NCBI GenBank assembly: GCA_003021005.1
Contig: PXRI01000043.1
Span: forward strand, 48,159-112,158
DNA: 64,000 bases
Direction: 5' to 3'
Origin: Halobacteriales archaeon QS_1_69_70
GTDB taxonomy: Archaea; Halobacteriota; Halobacteria; Halobacteriales; Haloarculaceae
Shown here piece by piece: positions 2,937-52,837 of this stretch; the stretch's first letter is position 1, and every line of letters starts with the position of its first letter. The notes under the pieces are model-generated. The model did not search any database. It saw only the letters and a list, made by a program, of their open reading frames with translations, and had not been told where the DNA came from. The position numbers were made by a program, and so were the translations under genes.

Positions 2937-3899
2937 ATGCCAAAGCAGGTCAGCGACCCGGACTACCACAGCGAGAACCACACGGCCGCCCAGACCTGCG
3001 GGTGGACGGCCAACGCGCTCCGTGGCGAGGGCCGCTGCTACAAAAACACCTTCTACGGCATCCAGTCCCACCGCTGCATCCAGATGACGCCGGTCGTCAA
3101 GTGCAACGAGCGCTGCGTGTTCTGCTGGCGGGACCACGCCGGCCACGCCTACGAACTCGACGGCGTCGAGTGGGACGACCCCGAGGCCGTCGTGGATGCG
3201 TCCATCGAGCTCCAGCGGAAACTCCTGTCCGGCTTCGGCGGCAACGACGACGTCCCGCGGGACGTCTTCGAGGAGGCCCTGGAGCCGCGCCACGTCGCCA
3301 TCTCGCTGGACGGCGAACCCACGCTATACCCCTACCTCCCCGAACTCATCGAGGCGTTCCACGACCGGGCGATCACCACGTTCCTCGTCTCGAACGGCAC
3401 GCGGCCCGAGGTGCTCGCGGAGTGTGACCCAACGCAGCTGTACGTCAGCGTCGACGCCCCCGACCGCAAGACGTTCGGCGAGGTGGTCAAGGCCGTCGAG
3501 GACGACGCCTGGGACCGCCTCATCGAGACCCTGGACGTCCTCGCCGCGAAAGAGGAGACCCGCACCGTGCTCCGGACCACTCTACTGGCCGGCTACAACA
3601 TGACCCACCCCGAGTGGTACGCCGCGATGTACGACCGGGCCGACGCGGACTTCGTCGAGCTGAAGGCCTACATGCACGTCGGCAACTCCCGGGACCGGCT
3701 CGACCGCGAGGTGATGCCGGACCACGCCGACGTCGTCGCGTTCACCGAGGCCGTCGGCGAGTACCTGCCGACCCACCCGGTGCTGCGGGACGTCGAGACG
3801 TCGCGGGTCGCACTGCTGGCGCGAGAGGAAGACACCTGGGTGCCGGAGCTGAAGGGCGGCAGCGAGTTCTGGGACCGGGCCCCCTACGCGAGTTCCTGA
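2937..3899 (+). CDS. taw1: tRNA 4-demethylwyosine synthase (TYW1/Taw1, radical SAM)
   Basis: CNERCVFCWRDH radical SAM CxxxCxxC, SLDGEPTLYPYLPELIEAFH, SVDAPD motifs; ATG at 2937. Confidence 0.93.
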   Translation: MPKQVSDPDYHSENHTAAQTCGWTANALRGEGRCYKNTFYGIQSHRCIQMTPVVKCNERCVFCWRDHAGHAYELDGVEWDDPEAVVDASIELQRKLLSGFGGNDDVPRDVFEEALEPRHVAISLDGEPTLYPYLPELIEAFHDRAITTFLVSNGTRPEVLAECDPTQLYVSVDAPDRKTFGEVVKAVEDDAWDRLIETLDVLAAKEETRTVLRTTLLAGYNMTHPEWYAAMYDRADADFVELKAYMHVGNSRDRLDREVMPDHADVVAFTEAVGEYLPTHPVLRDVETSRVALLAREEDTWVPELKGGSEFWDRAPYASS

Positions 3900-3939
3900 A
3901 TCCGGACCCCGCCCGGTCGCGGACCAGGCGCCGTCGTCG

Positions 3940-4887
3940 TTACGGTAGCACCACGGAGATGTCCAGCCCGACGTCCGTTTGGACCATCTCCTTGCAGCGG
4001 CCCATCGTGGTGCCGGCGGTGCCAGTGGCGGTGATGTGCGTCAGGATGCCGGCGGCAAGCTCGCCCTCCGGCCCCGTCCCGGCCGTCGTCGACTGCAGCG
4101 GCGAGCCGGAGTCGCCGGGGGAGGCGCGGACGGCGGCGAACCAGCTCTCCGGGGAGCCGAAGTCGCCCTCGGAGACGCCGTTGCTCCCCTGGCTCGCGAA
4201 CACCTCGCCGTTGCCCATGCCGGCGCCGTACTGGTTGACCGGCGTCCCGGCAGCGACGGCCCCGTCGGAGACGCCGGTGGGGCCGCCGAACTGCGGCATC
4301 GAGGGGTCGACGGCGTCCTCGGCGCTCGACGGGATGCGGACGAGCCCAAAGTCGTGGCCGACCGACGAGCCGTCCGGCAGGGTCTGGCGGGCGTAGGCCA
4401 CGTCGCCGAGCTCGATGGTCGTACCCCGGACGATCAACCCGGTCGCACCGCCGAACGTGCAGTCGGCGCAGACCGCGACCGACAGCTGGTTCACGTCGTA
4501 GACGTCGCCGTCGTCCTCGCCGTCCCGCTGTGCGTTCTCGCTTGCGTTCTTGCCGTCGGGAAGAAAGCAGTGGCCGGCCGCCCCGATGTAGCGGTCGCCC
4601 CACCCGTCCTGCCAGACGAAGTTGGCCGTACAGCCACCGGTCGTCCCGTCGGGGAAGGCAATGAACATCTGGGAACCGGGCCGAATGCCGGTGGCCAGCT
4701 CGGGGACGCCGCCGCCGGCCACGGTGTCAGTCTCGTCCGCCACCTCCAGACAGGGGATTCGTTCGGCGGACTCCCGGCGGTCGACGGTGTCGCCCGCCGA
4801 CGCGGTTCCGATGCCGCCGACCCCCGCTGCCGTTGCTGCACTCGCTCGGAGCAAATTTCGACGCGTCAACTCGTCTCTATCACGCAT
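3940..4887 (-). CDS. Tat-exported trypsin/chymotrypsin-fold serine protease
   Basis: N-terminal [14 protein letters not shown] Tat-like signal, AAGHC (His), DFGLVRI (Asp), PGDSGSP (Ser) motifs. Confidence 0.75.
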
Positions 4888-5064
4888 CGTTCGTGGTCGG
4901 GGGCGACGAACACAACTTGCTTACGCCGTCTATACCTGTCCTATTAAATCGCGACGGGACGGCGACGGGCCGCCGTGCAGTCGAGGAGCCGCGGTAGCCT
5001 CCGGCCATGGCTTCCGGGTTCACCTCGACCACCGGGCCGTCGGGGCCCTGTCGGCGGGTCGGCC

Positions 5065-5346
5065 CTACAGCGTGACGTCCTCGCCGGCGGTGACGACATC
5101 CAGTTCCGGTGGTTCGTCGCCGCCTTCCTGGACGTCGTCTTTGGGTGCGAGCGGGACGTCGTCGACGACGGGCATCTGTGCACTCCGGGAGACCGTCGGG
5201 CCGCCGACGCCGGACCCGATTGCACCCGCCAGGTTCATGACCACGCCGGCGGCGTCCTTGTCCCTGCCGGCCTCGTACTCCGCCAGGACCGACCCGGAGC
5301 CGCCGGCCGAGACGGGGTGTAGACGTACCAGCGTCGTTGGTTTCAT
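5065..5346 (-). CDS. small hypothetical protein
   Basis: [31 protein letters not shown]...; intergenic ORF between divergent genes. Confidence 0.4.
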
Positions 5347-5458
5347 TACCACACGACCGTTGCGTCCGGGGACGGAAGGCGTCCGCGGCCCCGTTCCATT
5401 TCTGGAACGCTTACCAGCTTCGTTACGCTTATCACCGGGAACCCCCTTATCCGACGGC

Positions 5459-6172
5459 ATGGCACGGACGGCCGAGCGCGTCGACCACGACGAGCTGGCG
5501 ACGCTGAAGCTCGTCGCGCTCGACGGCGCGCTCGAGAGCCGGACCACGGTGACCTGTGCGGCGCTCGCCGACCGGCTGGACGCGTCGAACCAGACGGCCT
5601 CCCGCCGGCTCCAGCGGCTCGAGGACGCCGACTACGTCGAACGGGAGATGACCGGGGACGGCCAACTCGTCGCGGTCACCGGGACGGGGGAGCGTGCCCT
5701 CAAGCGGGAGTACGCCGACTACCGGCGGCTGTTCGAGGGCCACGCCGACGTGACGCTGTCCGGCACGGTCACGAGCGGGATGGGGGAGGGCCGCCACTAC
5801 ATCTCGCTGCCGGGGTACATGCGGCAGTTCCGCGAGCGGCTGGGGTACGAGCCCTACGAGGGCACCCTGAACCTCGACCTGGACGAGGAGAGCGTCCGCG
5901 ACCGGGCCCGGATGGACGCGCTTGCCCCCATCGACATCGACGGCTGGGCGGACGAGGACCGCACCTACGGGCCCGCCTACTGCTGGCCGGCGAGGGTCGA
6001 GCGGGCCGACGCGTCCGGCGAGGGCGAGCGGTACGACGCCGCCCACGTCATCGCGCCGGAGCGGACCCACCACGGCGACGACCAGCTGGAGGTCATCGCG
6101 CCGGACCGGCTGCGGGACGAACTGCACCTGGAGGACGGCGACACGCTCACCATCCATGTCTCGGAGCAGTGA
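5459..6172 (+). CDS. ribK: CTP-dependent riboflavin kinase (HTH + DUF120)
   Basis: [41 protein letters not shown] motifs. Confidence 0.93.
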
Positions 6173-6887
6173 CACCGCCGGCGTCCGCACGGGCGTCGAC
6201 GACGCCGTGGCGGCGTTCGGAAGCGGCGACCCGGTCCTGATCCACGACGCGGCCGACCGGGAGGGCGAGGTCGACCTCGTCCACCCGGCCGCCGCCGTCG
6301 CCCCCGCCGACGTCGCGCGGATGCGGAACGACGCCGGCGGCCTGGTCTGTGTCGCGCTCCCGGACGACGTATGCGACGCCTGGGGCCTCCCGTTCGCCCG
6401 GTCGACGCTCTCACACCCGGCCGCCGAGGCCCACGACCTCGCCTACGGCGACCGCTCGTCGTTCTCCATCACGGTGAACCACCGCGACACCTTCACCGGG
6501 GTGACCGACGAGGACCGGGCGTTGACCATCTCCGCGCTCGGCGAGGCCGCCGCTGCGGTGCGTCAGGCGACGGCGCTGGCCGGCGACGGGGCCCGCGGCG
6601 CCGTCGCCGCCGGCCCCGAGGGCTTCGCCGAGCGGTTCCGCGCACCCGGGCACGTCCACCTCCTGCGGGCCGCCCCCGGGCTGACCGACGACCGGGCGGG
6701 CCACACCGAACTCGGCGTCGCGCTGGCCGACGCCGCCGGCGTGGCGCCCGCCGCCGTGGTCTGTGAGATGCTCGACGACGAGGACGGCGGCGCGCTCTCG
6801 CCGACCGCCGCCCGCGCACACGCCGACCGGCACGGGCTGGCGTACGTGGAGGGGGCGGACCTCATCGAGCGGTTCGACCGAGAATGA
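6156..6887 (+). CDS. ribB: 3,4-dihydroxy-2-butanone-4-phosphate synthase
   Basis: [52 protein letters not shown] at 6156 overlaps ribK by 17 bp. Confidence 0.93.
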
Positions 6888-14414: not shown

Positions 14415-16391
14415 GTGAGCACGCGCACGAGCGCTCTCGATTCGCTCATCTTCGGCGTCGACGTCCAGAGCGGCGACGTCAGGGGCGAGGCGCCCTCCTA
14501 CGCCGTCGTCGCGCTCGACGGCGAGTCGGTCGACCGCGACGTGGTCAGCCGCCGGAAGCTCCGCCGCCGGATCCAGGCCGAGGAGCCGGCCATCGTCGCG
14601 ACGGACAACACCTTCGAACTCGCCGCGGACAAGGAGGCCCTGGTGGGGTTCCTCCGGGAGTTGCCGGGCGGAACGACGCTCGTCCAGGTGACCGGCGACG
14701 AGCGGCCGGAGCCGCTCTCGCGGGTCGCGGCCCGCCACGGCGTCCCCTACGGGAAGGCGCCGATGCAGGAGGCCGAAGCCGCCGCGCGGCTGGCCGCCCG
14801 GAACGTCGGCTACGAGGTGTCGGCCTTCACCGACACCACCGAGGTCAAGGTCGCCCGCGGCCGGACGACGGGCGGTGGCGGGTGGAGCGAGGACCGGCTC
14901 ACCCGCCGGATCCACGGCTCGGTGAAGCGGACGGCCCGCGAGGTCGAATCCGACCTCGACGACGCCGGCCTCGCGTACGACCGCGACGTCACCGAGAAGT
15001 ACGGCGGGTTCTCCCGGGCCGTCTTCGAGGTCGAGGCGACGCCGGAGGAGCTGCCGGTGTCGGCCCGGCGGTCCGGCGACATCCGGATCGAGGTCGAGCG
15101 GGAGCGCCGCGAGGGCATCGAGTACCGGCCGCTCGCCACCCGACGGGACCACGTCGTCGTCGGCATCGATCCCGGGACGACGACGGCGGTGGCGCTTCTG
15201 GATTTGGATGGCGACGTCCTCGACGTCTGGTCGACTCGAACGGCCGACACCGCCGCGGTCATCGAGTGGATCATCGAACACGGCCGGCCCGTCCTGGTGG
15301 CGGCCGACGTCACGCCGATGCCGGAGACCGTCGAGAAGATCCGGCGGAGCTTCGACGCCGGCGCATGGGTGCCCGACGTCGACCTCCCGGTCGACGAGAA
15401 GCTCCACCGGACCCGCGAACACCCCACCGACAACGATCACGAGCGGGACGCCCTGGCGGCGGCGCTTTTCGCCTTCGACGACCGCGAGGACCAGTTCGAT
15501 CGGATCACCGCCAGGACGCCGGCGCCGCTGAACCGCGGGGAGGTCATCGCCGGCGTCGTCGGGAGCGACGAGAGCGTCGAGTCGGTGGTTTCCGACCTCG
15601 CCGACGACGAGGAGGGCGACGAGGAGTCGACCGAACACGACCCCCGGGAACCGTCCGCTGAGGAGAAGGAGATAAAGCGGCTGGAGGCCCGCGTCGGCCG
15701 GCTCGAGGACCACGTCGAGGACCTCGAGGACACCGTCCGCCGGAAGGACGACCGCATCGAGGAGCTGGAGACGGAGCTGTCGGACGCCCGCCGCGAGGAG
15801 CGTCGGGAGGCTCGCGAGCGCCGGGAGGTCACCCGGCTCCAACGGGACAACGAGCGGCTAAAGCGGGAGCTGGCCGAGGCCGAGGCTGCCACCGAGCAGC
15901 TCGACGACAAGCTCGAGCGCCTGAAGGAGCTGTGGAAGCTCGACCACTCGAACTTCGCCGACGTGGCCGCCGAGCGGCAGGACCTGGTCCCGGTCAAGCC
16001 CGTCGAGCAGTTCACGACCGACGCCATCGAGGCCGCCGACGAGACCTACGGCATCGCGGCCGGCGACGTCGTCTACCTCCGGGACGCAAGCGGCGCCGGC
16101 CGGTCGACGGCCCGCCTGCTCGCCGACATGGGGCCGCGGCTCGTCCTCCGGGAGGGCGGGCTCTCCGAGCAGGCCGACCGGGTGCTGTTCGAGGCGGAGG
16201 TGCCGGTCGCGCCCGCCGAGGAGGCGACCATCCGGGAGATAGACGAACTCGCGGTCACCCGCGAGGGCGACGTCGAGGCGGCCATCGCCGGCTGGAAGGA
16301 CCGCGCCGAACGCCGCCGCCGCGAGCGGAAGGCCGAGGAGCTGGATCGGCTCATCAGCGAACACCGGGCCAGGGACACAGACGGGGACTGA
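14415..16391 (+). CDS. DUF460 protein (RNase H-like fold with C-terminal coiled coil)
   Basis: GTG start; SLIFGVDVQSGDVRGEAPSYAVVALD, VVVGIDPGTTTAVALLDLDG, charged coiled coil. Confidence 0.85.
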   Translation: MSTRTSALDSLIFGVDVQSGDVRGEAPSYAVVALDGESVDRDVVSRRKLRRRIQAEEPAIVATDNTFELAADKEALVGFLRELPGGTTLVQVTGDERPEPLSRVAARHGVPYGKAPMQEAEAAARLAARNVGYEVSAFTDTTEVKVARGRTTGGGGWSEDRLTRRIHGSVKRTAREVESDLDDAGLAYDRDVTEKYGGFSRAVFEVEATPEELPVSARRSGDIRIEVERERREGIEYRPLATRRDHVVVGIDPGTTTAVALLDLDGDVLDVWSTRTADTAAVIEWIIEHGRPVLVAADVTPMPETVEKIRRSFDAGAWVPDVDLPVDEKLHRTREHPTDNDHERDALAAALFAFDDREDQFDRITARTPAPLNRGEVIAGVVGSDESVESVVSDLADDEEGDEESTEHDPREPSAEEKEIKRLEARVGRLEDHVEDLEDTVRRKDDRIEELETELSDARREERREARERREVTRLQRDNERLKRELAEAEAATEQLDDKLERLKELWKLDHSNFADVAAERQDLVPVKPVEQFTTDAIEAADETYGIAAGDVVYLRDASGAGRSTARLLADMGPRLVLREGGLSEQADRVLFEAEVPVAPAEEATIREIDELAVTREGDVEAAIAGWKDRAERRRRERKAEELDRLISEHRARDTDGD

Positions 16392-16435
16392 CCACGACCG
16401 GAGCGCTTTTGCGTACAGATGGAGTCGCCTCGACC

Positions 16436-16663
16436 ATGCTACCCATCCAGTTCGGCATCCCCGGCGGCCCGGAGATACTGATTTTCCTGCTTATCGGCCC
16501 GGTCATCGCGGTCGCGCTCGCGTACTACATCTACACGGACGCGGAGAAGCGCGGCGAGGACAACGGGGCGCTGTGGGCAGTTGTGGCTGGCCTCGCATCC
16601 ATCGTCGCGTCCCCCATCGGCGGGCTGATCGTCCTGTTCGTGTACGTGCTCCAGCGCGAGTAG
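16436..16663 (+). CDS. small two-TM membrane protein
   Basis: MLPIQFGIPGGPEILIFLLIGPVIAVALAYYIYTDAEKRG... Confidence 0.65.
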   Translation: MLPIQFGIPGGPEILIFLLIGPVIAVALAYYIYTDAEKRGEDNGALWAVVAGLASIVASPIGGLIVLFVYVLQRE

Positions 16664-16693
16664 ACCCGTCCGAGCCCCGGGCGCGACCGCCGA

Positions 16694-16903
16694 TTAGAAC
16701 AGGTCCTCGTACTCCATCCCCATCGACCGGAGGAACGACTCCATGAGCCCGTGGCCCACGAGGGCGTAGCCGAGGGCCACGGCGAGCGCCCCGACGGCGG
16801 CCCGCCGGTTCTCCCGGGCGAGGATGAGAAAGCCGACGACGAGCGCCACGAGGCCGGCGATGCCGGTCTCGCCGAGGGTCTTCTTCGCGACGTCTCCGTC
16901 CAT
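16694..16903 (-). CDS. small membrane protein
   Basis: MDGDVAKKTLGETGIAGLVALVVGFLILARENRRAAVG... Confidence 0.6.
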   Translation of the reverse strand: MDGDVAKKTLGETGIAGLVALVVGFLILARENRRAAVGALAVALGYALVGHGLMESFLRSMGMEYEDLF

Positions 16904-17269
16904 ACCGTCGAATGTGAGCGATGCGATAAAAGGGATTTGCTCGGTCCAGGGGTGTGCGTCTGGGGGAAGACAACTCGGCATGCCGACTGGGGCGGAATTA
17001 CGAAGCATCCCTTAGCGAGTAGAGAGAGCGAGCTATTCACCCGCGGCGAGGGCGTGGCGCGAGCAAAATAGAGAGATACTGGAATAAGTGCGCGCTGGGA
17101 GCGACGAGCATCCGCGAGCGCGCCGGCAGGCGCGCGAGCGGTTCACCGTCGGCGACCGAAGGGAGCCGACGGGGCGGTAGTTTTTCCCCAAGTTTTTGCG
17201 AGCGAGTGGCTCCCCGCAGCGCGCCGGAGGCGCGCGAGGAAGCCCGAGCGAGTAAAAAGTGGGGGTTCC

Positions 17270-40498: not shown

Positions 40499-40890
40499 GC
40501 GAAACCGCTGTCTGTCGAGTGGGAGCTCGGACGACGCAGCCCGCACAGCCGAGCGGAGCGAGGCGAGCAGGACCATCGTCCGGCGTTCCCGCGAGACCGG
40601 CAGCGACTGTCGCCCTGAGGCGACGGTCGCACGCGTCGAGTGGGAGCTCGTCGGGCGAGCGAAGCGAGTCCGACGACGTTCCCGCGAGATCGCCAACGTC
40701 TGAGCCCGTAGGGCGAAGACGTTGGGAGCCGGCGAGGCGCGCGAGGCGCGACCGTCGGGAGCGCCTCGTGGTGGGCGAGCGGGGACCGGAAGGAACCGCG
40801 AGCGGAGCGAGTTTCGCAGGACCGGCAGCGACTGTCGCCGTGAGGCGACGGTCGCACGCCTCGAGCGGGAGCTCGGACGACACACCTCGA
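40465..40890 (+). repeat. aspS 3'-end-like repeat array with stem-loops
   Basis: [10 protein letters not shown]-stop encoded at 40468-40498 (aspS), 40586-40618, 40679-40711 and partially at 40820-40843, each overlapping an inverted repeat. Confidence 0.85.
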
Positions 40891-41016
40891 ACCGGGCGAG
40901 GGCCGAAGCCGCGAGCCAGCGAAGCGCTACGAAGGCCGCAGCTACCGACCGTCCAGCGGCCGGCGACGCCGGCGCAAAAGTAAGAACTAACCCTTTTGCT
41001 GGTGAGTTTTATCGCT

Positions 41017-41457
41017 ATGATAAACCTCTCGACCCGTAAGGAATGGCGTTATGCTACGTTCGCTACTGGTGGATTATACCTGTTGGGATTGCTACTTTAC
41101 TTGTCCTTTATATTACATTTTATAATTATATTTGATCAGAATCGAAGACTTCTGAGACAAGCCGGGGCGTCGCCCCAGACTGTTCAACAAACCCTCTTTG
41201 CACCTTTCTTGAATATTACACTTTTTTTCGCGGTATTGGGCGGTCCGTTTGTCTTTATGATATTAGGTGAAAATCTTCTTGGAGATGACTTCAGGATAAT
41301 TGAGGGTGTTCTGACTATTTTGTTCATGCTTAACGGGATTATTTTGTACATTTTAGATGTGCCTAGTTCTGGGGAAGTAGTAGTGTTAATATTAGTTCCT
41401 TTTATGTTTATAGCAATAATAATACCTATTACGGTCGGATATAGATATGTAGACTAA
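41017..41457 (+). CDS. AT-rich multi-TM membrane protein of unknown function
   Basis: MINLSTRKEWRYATFATGGLYLLGLLLYLSFILHFIIIF...; AT-rich codon usage unlike surroundings. Confidence 0.7.
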   Translation: MINLSTRKEWRYATFATGGLYLLGLLLYLSFILHFIIIFDQNRRLLRQAGASPQTVQQTLFAPFLNITLFFAVLGGPFVFMILGENLLGDDFRIIEGVLTILFMLNGIILYILDVPSSGEVVVLILVPFMFIAIIIPITVGYRYVD

Positions 41458-41522
41458 AGATTTGATATATATTTATAATATTTGAATATCTTTGGTTTAT
41501 TTTAACAAAGTATGCTGTAGAG

Positions 41523-41705
41523 ATGGCAGCGGTCAGTCACGACCTGGATTTCCTCGATCCGGAGACCGCGGCCGGCGTCACGGTTCTCTACGACGGGGAT
41601 GACACGATGGATACCGGCGACATCGCAGAGCGCGTCGAAACACTCGCCGAGTGGGTCCCGGATGCGGATGCGCTTCCGCCGGTCGTGAACATCGGCGAGT
41701 GGTGA
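41523..41705 (+). other. short ORF of uncertain status (60 aa) overlapping a degenerate minus-strand fragment
   Basis: MAAVSHDLDFLDPETAAGVTVLYDGDD...; minus strand holds CNAHYVQLSPDGDHVYVGAQTYP beta-propeller-like remnant. Confidence 0.3.
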
Positions 41706-48629: not shown

Positions 48630-49457
48630 GTGACCGACGCGACCGCGTTCGTCCCGGGCCACGTGACCGGCTTCTTCACCGTCAACCGGGACGACGACCC
48701 GACGAAGGCGGGGTCGCGGGGCGCCGGCGTCACCCTCGCCGACGGCGTCACCGTCCGGCTCGAGCCCGGCGACGGCGTCGAGCTGAACGGCGAGGTCTGC
48801 GACATCGAGGCGGTCGCCCGGGTCCTCGACGCGCTCCGGTCGACCGCCCACGTGGTCGTCGAGACCGACCTCCCACTGTCGGCCGGCTTCGGCGTCTCCG
48901 GCGCGGCAGCCCTCGGGACGGCGCTCGCCGCCGACGCGGTGTTCGACCACGGCCTCTCGGAGAACGAACTCGTCACCGTCGCCCACGGCGCCGATGTCCA
49001 GGCCGGGACCGGCCTCGGCGACGTGGTCGCACAGGCACGCGGCGGGTTCCCCGTCCGCCTCGAGCCGGGTGCGCCGGCCCACGGCGCGATGGACGGCATC
49101 CCGGCCACCCGCGAGGTCGAGTACCTCGCCCGCGGCGAACGCAGCACCGAGGCCGTTCTCACCGGCGACACCGAGCCGATCACGGAGGCCGGACGCCAGG
49201 CACTCTCGGCGCTCGTCGCCGAACCCACCCTGGAAACGTTCATGCACGACTCCCGGCGGTTCGCCCGCGAGACCGAACTGCTCACGCCCGCGGTCCGCGA
49301 GACGGTCCAGGCCGTCGCCGAGGCGGGCGGGGAGGCCTCGATGGCGATGCTCGGCGAGACCGTCTTCGCCCTCGACACGGGGCTGTCGGATGCGGGCTAC
49401 GACGCCGAGCGGTGTGCGGTGTCGCTGACCGGCGCGCACCTCGAGCCGTCCGCCTGA
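48630..49457 (+). CDS. pantoate kinase (GHMP family, archaeal CoA pathway)
   Basis: FVPGHVTGFFTVNRDDDPTKAGSRGAGVTL, LSAGFGVSGAAALGTALA, QAGTGLGDVVAQARGG. Confidence 0.92.
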   Translation: MTDATAFVPGHVTGFFTVNRDDDPTKAGSRGAGVTLADGVTVRLEPGDGVELNGEVCDIEAVARVLDALRSTAHVVVETDLPLSAGFGVSGAAALGTALAADAVFDHGLSENELVTVAHGADVQAGTGLGDVVAQARGGFPVRLEPGAPAHGAMDGIPATREVEYLARGERSTEAVLTGDTEPITEAGRQALSALVAEPTLETFMHDSRRFARETELLTPAVRETVQAVAEAGGEASMAMLGETVFALDTGLSDAGYDAERCAVSLTGAHLEPSA

Positions 49458-49611
49458 TCGGCTGCCGATCACCCGCGTACGCGATGGCTCGCCTGCCCGG
49501 TACCCGACCGTCGCCGTTCGCCGGCAGCAACTGCGAGCGCCTGTACAACGTGGGACGGGTCACCCTCTCGACCGGAACACCCATGCAGGCGCCCCGAAAA
49601 CCCGTCTCACG

Positions 49612-50196
49612 ATGGTCACCACCGCCCTCGAGTGGCTCCGACCCCACTCGGTCCCGCTCGGTATTGTTGCCGTCCTCGCGGTCGCCGCCCTGTTCGTGCC
49701 GCCACTCGTCCTGAACCCATCCGCCGAGACGTATGCGATAACCGCCGCAATCCTCGTTCTCGCGGTCGTCTCGAGTGTCCCCTACGCTGTTGGCGTCTCA
49801 CTACTCACGCTCCCGCCGCAGTATCTCGGGAGCGCTACGTACGCCTCGCCGGGCGGGATCCCCGACGAGGGCAAACCTAAGCCCACGGCCGCACTCCGAC
49901 ACGCCGGCGCCGGGGTCACGTACGTGCTTTCAGCCGGCGCAGTGGGCGGTATCGGGATTGGGGTCGACGTGGCGAGTTCCGCCAGCGCCTCGACCCCGCC
50001 CACCGGTGTCCCGTTCACCTATCTCGCGGGCGGGGTGGTCGGTGTCGTCTTCGTCGCCCTCCAGCTGTGGCGATACGACGCGCCGCTGTCCGACCTGGAA
50101 ACGCAAACGGTCATCTGGACAGTCGGCCTCGGACTGCTCTTGGTCCCGGCGGGCCGTGTCGCGATATGGGTGTTCGGCGGCGGCCTCCCGTTCTGA
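49612..50196 (+). CDS. multi-TM membrane protein, paralog A
   Basis: LRPHSVPLGIVAVLAVAALFVPPLVLNPSAETYAITAAILVLAVVSSVPYAVGVSLLTLP; similar to 51413-52012. Confidence 0.7.
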   Translation: MVTTALEWLRPHSVPLGIVAVLAVAALFVPPLVLNPSAETYAITAAILVLAVVSSVPYAVGVSLLTLPPQYLGSATYASPGGIPDEGKPKPTAALRHAGAGVTYVLSAGAVGGIGIGVDVASSASASTPPTGVPFTYLAGGVVGVVFVALQLWRYDAPLSDLETQTVIWTVGLGLLLVPAGRVAIWVFGGGLPF

Positions 50197-50322
50197 ATGG
50201 CCAGAGGGGAATCCGGCCGCGGAGACCGGGCCGCTTTTCATCGCCCTCGGCGGGAGAGCATCCTCCCCATGCGAGCGGTCAGTCGGCTCCCGATCCGCCG
50301 GACTCGCCGTGACCAATCGATC

Positions 50323-50970
50323 TCATTCCTGCGGAATGAGCAACACCCCGCCTAGAAACCCGAACACGAGCGGATACACCACCGCAGCCAGTACCGCATA
50401 CGGGACGGACGGACCGGCCGTGACACCCTCGAGCGTCGATGCCCTGAAGCTCGTCGAGCCGATCTCGACCGTCCCGGTTGCGCCCGGTGCCACCGGGACG
50501 GTCGCCAGCCACAGTGCGACGAGCATCACGGGGGTGTAGCCCAGCGCGATCAGCGCCCCCACGTGCACATCGATCCGCCCGCGGTCGTCGGACACGAACC
50601 GACGGACGGCGCCGTCCGCCACTGCACCGGCGACCGTGAGGAGGGCGATCGGGACGACCCACGACGTCTCCGCGTATCGGTCGGCGTTGCCATCTATTAC
50701 ATCGAACACGCCTCCGATGATAGTGACATCCGTCCCGTCGCTCGTGAACTCGACCGTCGGTTCGACGCCCATCGCGTCGAACCACGTCCACGTCGCTGCC
50801 GTGACCGGGCCCACCCCGTCGACCGTGAGTTCGGTGAACGGTTCGAGTTCGCCGATCGGACCCTCGCCCACGACCGCCAGGAACAGGCCACTCAGTGCGA
50901 GGCCCAGCATCGCGGTGAGCACCCCCACCGCGGCGGCGATCCGATACTCGGGTTTATTAACCGCTCGCAC
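50323..50970 (-). CDS. hypothetical multi-TM membrane protein
   Basis: MRAVNKPEYRIAAAVGVLTAMLGLALSGLFLAVVG... Confidence 0.65.
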   Translation of the reverse strand: MRAVNKPEYRIAAAVGVLTAMLGLALSGLFLAVVGEGPIGELEPFTELTVDGVGPVTAATWTWFDAMGVEPTVEFTSDGTDVTIIGGVFDVIDGNADRYAETSWVVPIALLTVAGAVADGAVRRFVSDDRGRIDVHVGALIALGYTPVMLVALWLATVPVAPGATGTVEIGSTSFRASTLEGVTAGPSVPYAVLAAVVYPLVFGFLGGVLLIPQE

Positions 50971-51169
50971 TTGCCGAGTTCATTTGCCTTGACATATATG
51001 GATTTCGTTCGGTGTGCCGACCCGACCGACCACACCGTCGTCCGCTCGCCAGCCCGCCGGCGGACCACGTCACCCGCGAATACGGGCGATCCCCAAGTCG
51101 ACGGCGCCCGTCCGGCATCGGTGCGGGCTCCGCCGGTCGTGGCCGGGGGCGGCGTAGTGGCCGCCGGCG

Positions 51170-51325
51170 GTCCGGGAGGCCATCGAGGCGGTCTCGGCGG
51201 CCGGCGGCGAGGCCTCGATGGCGATGCCCGGCGAGACCGTCTTCGCCCTCGACACGGGGCTCTCAGACGCGGGCTACGACGCCGAGCGGTTTGCGGTGTC
51301 GCTGGCCGGCGCGAACCTCCGGTAG
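51170..51325 (+). pseudogene. duplicated 3' fragment of pantoate kinase
   Basis: VREAIEAVSAAGGEASMAMPGETVFALDTGLSDAGYDAERFAVSLAGANLR-stop vs PoK VRETVQAVAEAGGEASMAMLGETVFALDTGLSDAGYDAERCAVSLTGAHLEPSA-stop. Confidence 0.92.
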
Positions 51326-51412: not shown

Positions 51413-52012
51413 ATGTCGAGGCCGCCCTCCACTGTCGACCGGTTTCGGCCGTACTCGGTACCGATCAGCATCTTCGCGCTCGTCGCCCTGGCTATCGTCG
51501 TGGTGCCGCCGGTCCTGCTCGGCGACCCCTCCGGCCGGACCTACGCCCTAACGGCTGCGTGGGTCATTCTGGCGGTCTGGGCCGCGCTGCCGTACGCCCT
51601 GACGGTCGGGCTCGTGACGCTCCCGCTCGTCTACACCGGCATCGCGACGTACGCTGCACCCAGCCTGCTTCCCGGGGCCCGCGACTCGGCGAGCCCCTCG
51701 GCCGTCATCCGGCACTCACTCGCCGGCGTCGCGTACGTCCTCGCCGCCGGCGTCGTTGGCGCGGTGGGGCTCGGGGCCGACTTCGTGACCGCGAACGAGC
51801 CCGCCGTCCCGACCGGCGTCCTGCCCTCGTTCACGCTCTTGGCCGGGGGCGTCGTCGGAGCCTGTTTCGTCGGCCTCCAACTGTGGCGGCATAGGGCCAC
51901 GGCCCGCGGTTCTGACGCTCATACGACCATCGGGACCATTGTGCTCGGGCTTTGGCTCGTGCCCGCCGGCCACGTCGCCGTCTGGCTGTTCCAGCGCGGC
52001 GTGCTGTTGTAA
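51413..52012 (+). CDS. multi-TM membrane protein, paralog B
   Basis: FRPYSVPISIFALVALAIVVVPPVLLGDPSGRTYALTAAWVILAVWAALPYALTVGLVTLP; similar to 49612-50196. Confidence 0.7.
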   Translation: MSRPPSTVDRFRPYSVPISIFALVALAIVVVPPVLLGDPSGRTYALTAAWVILAVWAALPYALTVGLVTLPLVYTGIATYAAPSLLPGARDSASPSAVIRHSLAGVAYVLAAGVVGAVGLGADFVTANEPAVPTGVLPSFTLLAGGVVGACFVGLQLWRHRATARGSDAHTTIGTIVLGLWLVPAGHVAVWLFQRGVLL

Positions 52013-52090: not shown

Positions 52091-52837
52091 ATGACCGAGG
52101 TCGACATTCCGGCGTCCCATCCCCGCTCCGAGTCGCTCCGCCGCAGACACCGCATCGAGGCGGGCGTCGAGGCGGGCATCACCTCCCGGCAGGGCCTCAT
52201 CGCCCAGGGCCGCGGCGAGGCGTTCGACTACCTGCTCGGCGAGCGCACCATCCCCAGCGCCGACGCCGCCGAGCGCGCCGCCGCCGCCCACCTCCTCCGG
52301 GCCGACCACGCCGTGCTCTCGGTCAACGGCAACGTGGCCGCCCTGGCGCCCGCGGAGACGGTCGAACTCGCCGACGCCACCGGCGCCGCGCTGGAGGTCA
52401 ACCTGTTCGACCGCACCGACGAGCGGGTCGCCCACATCGCCGACCACCTCAGAGATTACGGGGCCGAGTCGGTGCTGGGGGCCGGCGCCGACGACCGCGT
52501 CCCCGGCCTCGACCACGAACGGGCGACGGTCGACGCCGACGGCATCGGCCGCGCCGACGTGGTCCTGGTCCCGCTCGAGGACGGCGACCGCGCCGAGGCG
52601 CTGGCCGAGATGGGCACGACCCAGCTCGTGGTCGACCTGAATCCCCTCTCGCGATCCGCCCGGGCGGCCGCGGTCCCCATCGTCGACAACCTCGTCCGGG
52701 CGCTCCCGAACGTGACCGCACACGCCCGGGAACTGGGCGAGGCGAGCAACGCGGAGCTGGACGGGATCGTCGAGGACTTCGACGCCCGAGACGCCCTGGA
52801 TGCCGCCGAGGCCGCCATCCGCTCCGGCGACGAGTGA
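52091..52837 (+). CDS. 4-phosphopantoate-beta-alanine ligase (archaeal PPS)
   Basis: IPASHPRSESLRRRHRIEAGVEAGITSRQGLIAQGRGEAFDYLLGERT, LSVNGNVAALAP, VDLNPLSRSA. Confidence 0.92.
   Translation: MTEVDIPASHPRSESLRRRHRIEAGVEAGITSRQGLIAQGRGEAFDYLLGERTIPSADAAERAAAAHLLRADHAVLSVNGNVAALAPAETVELADATGAALEVNLFDRTDERVAHIADHLRDYGAESVLGAGADDRVPGLDHERATVDADGIGRADVVLVPLEDGDRAEALAEMGTTQLVVDLNPLSRSARAAAVPIVDNLVRALPNVTAHARELGEASNAELDGIVEDFDARDALDAAEAAIRSGDE

What the first reader, a model, noticed from the sequence alone, without database searches (positions are those of the whole stretch)
49293..51325. The pantoate kinase 3' end is duplicated about 1.9 kb downstream as a pseudogene fragment
51170-51325 encodes VREAIEAVSAAGGEASMAMPGETVFALDTGLSDAGYDAERFAVSLAGANLR-stop, nearly matching the PoK C-terminus ending at 49457. 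Each copy is followed by a related membrane protein gene, so a unit [PoK 3' end + TM gene] was duplicated or left by recombination. A gene-end fossil appears here as well as at aspS, which hints at a recurring mechanism such as gene-end homologous replacement.
Basis: seen in the sequence. Interest (0 to 1): 0.66.

Follow-up and report, generated by a model that had tools for sequence, protein, structure and literature searches.

The report
Foreign insert duplicates a gene's end
A salt-loving archaeon carries a broken second copy of the last 158 bases of a vitamin-pathway gene, because a stretch of DNA apparently from a related species was recombined in beside that gene instead of replacing it; it is a clear scar of a known kind of event, not a new mechanism.

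Summary
51162-51319 is an 88% direct repeat of 49285-49442, the 3' end of pantoate kinase (PoK), and each copy is followed by a homologous membrane-protein gene (TM1, TM2). The reading as an in-place duplication is wrong. The closest relative (G011) has the uninterrupted order PoK-TM2-PPS, about 96% identical to the window downstream of the repeat, so 49443 to about 51161 is extra DNA. It is a mosaic related to a sister Natronomonas clade: TM1 pairs with the G012 homologue (moderate support), a 919-nt REV segment is 90-91% identical to G010/G012 (where it follows PPS), and the first 60 nt of the fossil are 93% identical to that clade but 80% to this genome's own PoK. REV segment and fossil join with a 2-nt microhomology. 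Best reading: a donor fragment [PoK 3' end-TM1-(PPS lost)-REV] entered by homologous recombination in the PoK end, its far end joined illegitimately, probably via a recircularised fragment. This is a new instance of a known kind. The aspS 'fossil' is a palindromic intergenic repeat. Two other gene-end fossils were found in about 90% of this genome, both shared with G011. Tree tests on the short fossil are not decisive.

The parts
48630..49457 (+). Pantoate kinase (PoK), intact; native lineage up to 49442, then a different end (GAGCCGTCCGCCTGA, ...HLEPSA-stop)
49285..49442 (+). Left copy of the 158-nt repeat (PoK 3' end, G011-like, 94.3%)
49612..50196 (+). TM1, unnamed membrane-protein gene; groups with the G012 homologue (63% aa, shared gaps)
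50197..50244 (.). Spacer resembling the region upstream of PPS, running straight into post-PPS donor sequence: the place where a donor PPS gene is missing
50245..51163 (.). REV segment, 90-91% identical to the PPS-DUF spacer region of G010 and G012
50323..50970 (-). REV, unnamed membrane-protein gene, open; homologues within the genus only in G010 and G012
51162..51163 (.). Junction REV segment / PoK fragment with 2-nt microhomology (CG)
51162..51325 (+). PoK 3'-end fossil: donor-like 5' part, native 3' part and native TAG; changes at residues conserved in the genus (L to P, C to F, H to N)
51413..52012 (+). TM2, the native TM gene (93% aa to G011)
52091..52837 (+). PPS (4-phosphopantoate--beta-alanine ligase), native, the only copy in the genome

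Best explanation
It is the scar of an interspecies insertion at the PoK-TM-PPS locus of a Natronomonas-like haloarchaeon. The native order was PoK-TM2-PPS, as still seen in G011 (shown). A DNA fragment from a relative in the G010/G012/G018 clade, with the order PoK 3' end-TM1-PPS-REV as in G012, entered by homologous recombination in the PoK 3' end (inferred). The fragment's far end, in the spacer beyond REV, was joined to a PoK 3' end with 2 nt of microhomology (junction shown, end joining inferred). Most likely the trimmed donor fragment circularised on itself and integrated by one crossover, with some repair of the heteroduplex (inferred). This left a working-looking PoK with a new last few codons on one side and a PoK end without its 5' part in front of TM2 on the other. 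The redundant donor PPS was lost before or after entry (its absence is shown, the timing is not). The fossil appears non-functional; TM1 and REV are open reading frames of unknown role.
For: Empty site in G011: PoK-TM2-PPS without TM1/REV/fossil, about 92% identical upstream and 96% downstream of the extra DNA. The REV segment is 90-91% identical to G010 and G012, as close as those two are to each other (91%), and in both it sits after PPS. TM1 pairs with G012's TM (support 82/77) and shares its gaps. Fossil nt 1-60: 93.3% to G010, G012 and G018, 80.0% to G011 and to the local PoK; of the 8 sites in nt 1-37 at which G011 and the local PoK agree against the donor clade, 7 are donor-like in the fossil. 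Downstream of the stop it is G011-like. REV/fossil junction with a 2-nt overlap. Precedent: in E. coli, linearised DNA carrying a lacZ 3' end gave mostly partial lacZ-end duplications of 109-950 bp, attributed to trimming, recircularisation and a single crossover (PMC3240628).
Against: The exact donor is not in the data; TM1 is only 63% aa (dS about 0.69) to its nearest homologue, far more distant than REV is to its own, so TM1 and REV need not share one donor. AU tests on the first 66 nt of the fossil do not reject grouping it with the local/G011 PoK (p 0.23), and over nt 67-158 and over all 158 nt it groups there. Both copies are native-like at sites 95, 110 and 132, so a single clean crossover does not fit without repair or a second crossover.
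Confidence: 0.7

Rival explanations
1. In-place tandem duplication of [PoK 3' end + TM] followed by divergence.
For: The two blocks have the same order, PoK end then TM gene.
Against: PoK ends 88% nt but TM genes about 49% aa; TM2 is 93% aa to G011's TM while TM1 groups with G012; REV is foreign; G011 has a single block.
Confidence: 0.04
2. Same foreign insert, but one-sided: homologous recombination in the PoK end on one side and illegitimate joining of the far end to the cell's own PoK 158 bp before its repeat end (homology-facilitated illegitimate recombination with a second chromosome copy), so the whole fossil is native.
For: The fossil groups with local/G011 PoK over nt 67-158 and AU does not reject this for nt 1-66; 2-nt junction. 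One-sided events of this type are known in bacteria (PMC3240628).
Against: Fossil nt 1-60 match the donor clade at 93% against 80% for native, with 7 diagnostic sites donor-like.
Confidence: 0.18
3. Assembly chimera: reads of co-occurring related strains joined in one metagenome contig.
For: The genome is fragmented and incomplete (44 contigs, 82% complete), and relatives with matching segments exist as metagenome assemblies.
Against: The REV/fossil junction rests on 2 nt and the PPS loss on no visible repeat, which k-mer joining would not be expected to produce; the longest identical run between the two repeat copies is 33 nt. REV differs by about 9-10% from both sampled relatives.
Confidence: 0.07
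4. Remnant of a site-specific integrative element that targets the PoK 3' end.
For: The host gene's end is regenerated and duplicated, as elements that integrate into gene 3' ends do (general knowledge).
Against: No integrase in the 1.7 kb; the repeat is long and diverged rather than a short identical core; TM and REV homologues sit in the same locus in relatives, none in viral contigs, and only weak TM hits on Haloarcula plasmids.
Confidence: 0.03
5. The insertion predates the split from G011, and G011 lost it by recombination between the two PoK ends (a variant of the best explanation in timing only).
For: Such excision would restore exactly the G011 layout; two other gene-end fossils are shared with G011.
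Against: Needs an extra loss; no remnant in G011.
Confidence: 0.1

Closest known systems
Partial gene-end duplication by recircularised donor DNA and a single crossover (E. coli lacZ-end experiments, PMC3240628)
   Same: A gene's 3' end is duplicated over a short stretch (109-950 bp there, 158 bp here), flanking foreign DNA, with a truncated copy lacking the gene's 5' part
   Different: Natural, interspecies, in a haloarchaeon; a donor gene is missing from the insert; the switch points of the two copies do not coincide cleanly
Homology-facilitated illegitimate recombination
   Same: Homologous recombination on one side and joining with almost no homology on the other
   Different: As described in PMC3240628 it predicts a deletion at the target rather than a duplicated gene end; here the fossil's start looks donor-derived
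Interspecies recombination and gene exchange in haloarchaea (PMC4500145; mating by cell fusion, PMC5496957; abstracts only)
   Same: Exchange of DNA between related haloarchaeal species
   Different: Here the donor segment was added beside the native one instead of replacing it

Membership tests
Single-crossover (Campbell-type) integration product | Foreign DNA flanked by direct repeats of the target, absent from a relative's empty site | tested here: met
Single-crossover (Campbell-type) integration product | Left copy native then donor, right copy donor then native, switching at the same coordinate | tested here: inconclusive
   Order is as expected, but sites 95, 110 and 132 are native-like in both copies; AU tests lack power
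Single-crossover (Campbell-type) integration product | A circular or tandem donor intermediate | not testable with these tools
   Only inferred, from the REV end being joined to a donor-like PoK end
In-place tandem duplication | Both blocks derive from one ancestor in this lineage | tested here: not met
   TM1 groups with G012, TM2 with G011
Site-specific integrative element | Integrase gene inside | tested here: not met
   Only TM1 and REV lie between the repeats; neither matches any Pfam or NCBIfam model
Site-specific integrative element | Short identical attachment core at both ends | tested here: inconclusive
   158 nt at 88% with a 33-nt identical run
Homology-facilitated illegitimate recombination | Homology on one side only, near-homology-free joint on the other, fossil of native origin in the duplication form | tested here: inconclusive
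   2-nt joint; fossil start donor-like by sites but trees do not decide
Pantoate kinase, archaeal (GHMP family) | GHMP kinase N-terminal domain and similarity to the pantoate kinase model | tested here: inconclusive
   PF00288 1.6e-10, above its cut-off; NF040725 pantoate kinase 1e-46 but below its curated cut-off (159 of 380 bits); adjacent PPS 1.1e-104 supports the name

The most novel reading that the evidence does not exclude
Lineages of this Natronomonas clade repeatedly add homologous donor segments beside the native ones through gene ends, because a recircularisation or end-joining step is a regular part of their DNA exchange, leaving datable gene-end fossils (PoK, NT5C/AKR, an exported-protein gene).
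Probability: 0.08. Interest if true: 0.5.

Novelty: new member of a known kind. Interest (0 to 1): 0.3.

Why it matters
It shows, with an empty site, sampled relatives of the donor and a base-level junction, how interspecies recombination in haloarchaea can add a segment next to its native counterpart and leave a readable gene-end scar. Neighbouring gene content around PoK and PPS varies across the genus, and such fossils could be used to count additive transfer events. It changes no view of coenzyme A synthesis.

Tried and rejected
In-place tandem duplication: rejected from TM and PoK relationships. aspS as a second case: the repeated [10 protein letters not shown] belongs to palindromic intergenic repeats. 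Mobile element: no REV match in plasmids or viral contigs, no TM1 match in viral contigs, only weak TM hits on three Haloarcula plasmids. AU/tree tests on the fossil: too few sites. AlphaFold model of TM1: mean pLDDT 48, five helices, not used further. One region request failed on length. One literature search gave nothing and one was malformed. Candidate local repeats L151 (tandem DUF192 genes) and L204 (domain paralogues, judged by eye) were set aside as paralogues; L201, L202, L121, L128, L130, L156 and others were not resolved.

Full report
Observation. The window lies in a 2.45-Mb, 44-contig haloarchaeal genome (82% complete) whose nearest named relatives are Natronomonas and unnamed Halobacteriales metagenome assemblies. 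A self-comparison finds 49285-49442 and 51162-51319 as an 88% direct repeat of 158 nt, E = 3e-51. The first copy is the 3' end of pantoate kinase (PoK, 48630-49457), the second an isolated fragment with a TAG at 51323-51325. TM1 and TM2, the genes after the copies, are homologous at about 49% aa. REV (50323-50970, minus strand) lies between, and PPS follows TM2.

Empty site. G011 (its contig has the same length as PXQY01000109.1, Halobacteriales archaeon QH_7_69_31) has PoK-TM2-PPS in immediate succession. The window aligns with it up to 49442 (92% over 2.3 kb) and again from 51162 onward (96%), and 49443-51161 has no counterpart. Of 19 other genomes of the genus none carries a second PoK end. 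Genome-wide, the window's genome has one PPS, one REV, and TM1 and TM2 only.

Origin of the extra DNA. The 919-nt REV segment (50245-51163) is 89.9% identical to G010 and 91.0% to G012, which are 91.3% identical to each other there; in both it stands between PPS and the next gene. REV has no other close homologue in 148 genomes of the family. TM1 groups with G012's TM (support 82/77) and shares its alignment gaps, at 63% aa. G012 has the order PoK-TM-PPS-REV, G010 PoK-PPS-REV. In the window the sequence after TM1 resembles a pre-PPS spacer and then continues as post-PPS donor sequence, so a donor PPS gene is missing. The insert is thus best read as the donor locus minus PPS. TM1 is much more diverged from G012 (dS about 0.69) than REV is (0.11), so a single donor is likely but not shown.

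The fossil. Its first 60 nt are 93.3% identical to G010, G012 and G018 and 80.0% to both the local PoK and G011, while the local copy is 93.3% to G011. At sites where G011 and the local PoK agree against the donor clade, the fossil is donor-like at 5, 14, 18, 21, 24, 33, 37 and 107, and native-like at 28, 95, 110, 132 and 158. After the stop it is G011-like. Trees on 66, 92 or 158 nt have little power: AU does not reject fossil + local + G011 for nt 1-66 (p 0.23), and nt 67-158 and the whole stretch place it there without strong support. The donor origin of the fossil's start therefore rests on the site pattern. The fossil carries L to P, C to F and H to N changes at residues that are nearly invariant in the genus, as expected without selection.

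Junctions. REV segment and fossil meet at 51162-51163 with a shared CG: the donor-clade spacer reads GTGGCCGGGG, the donor-clade PoK GACGCCGGCGG, the window GTGGCCGCCGGCGG. On the left, native PoK turns into foreign sequence after 49442, giving the end HLEPSA.

Mechanism. Shown: an extra segment with donor-clade affinity, flanked by PoK ends; a native flank on both sides; a 2-nt joint. Inferred: entry by homologous recombination in the PoK end; joining of the far end; recircularisation as the intermediate. In E. coli, linearised DNA with a lacZ 3' end gave 56 of 60 clones with partial lacZ-end duplications; 14 sequenced ones spanned 109-950 bp and were attributed to a single crossover with a circular molecule that had lost part of the lacZ end, most likely by linearisation, trimming and recircularisation (PMC3240628). 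That the two copies here do not switch at the same coordinate needs repair of the heteroduplex or two crossovers. One-sided joining to the native PoK is the main rival.

Recurrence. aspS is not an example. In about 90% of the genome, read in 20-kb stretches (2.34 Mb with overlaps), two further gene-end fossils emerged. On contig C31 an NT5C-like gene has a frameshifted 3' fossil about 0.6-0.9 kb downstream, followed by a small membrane-protein ORF, a 5' fossil of an aldo/keto reductase gene, a second copy of the small ORF and the intact reductase. G011 has the fossils too, while G010, G004 and G002 have the two genes adjacent, and the NT5C fossil is closer to G010 and G018 (82%) than to the local gene (78%). 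On contig C10 a gene with a signal-like start has a 3' fossil about 1.1 kb downstream, also in G011. This is a low count and no control genome was scanned, so it does not establish a special mechanism.

Verdict. A real, well-resolved recombination scar; a new instance of a known kind.

Noticed in passing
L137 (G000:C31) 3012-6878: NT5C-like gene with a frameshifted 3' fossil downstream, and an aldo/keto reductase 5' fossil upstream of the intact gene, with duplicated small membrane-protein ORFs; shared with G011, and G010, G004 and G002 have the two genes adjacent
   Followed up: partly
L155 (G000:C10) 14827-16989: 3' end of a gene with a signal-like start plus about 230 nt downstream repeated about 1.2 kb further on (84.6% over 390 nt); the 3' fossil is also in G011
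   Followed up: partly
window 40500-40900: Palindromic intergenic repeats after aspS that overlap its last codons ([10 protein letters not shown]) and recur elsewhere in the window
   Followed up: partly
window 41020-41455: AT-rich stretch (38% GC at 41200-41599 against about 70%) with a membrane-protein-like ORF of about 145 aa without Pfam match, not aligned in G011
   Followed up: no
window 49100-49260: Middle of PoK less similar to G011 (79-88%) than its surroundings, possibly another recombination tract or a variable loop
   Followed up: no
PoK-PPS locus in relatives (L065, L072, L066, L063): Different extra genes beside PoK and PPS: a condensation-like ORF of about 440 aa in G005 and in L072 (Natronomonas sp. 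CBA1123), a small ORF in G007, a peptidase-like ORF after PPS in G018; names judged by eye
   Followed up: no
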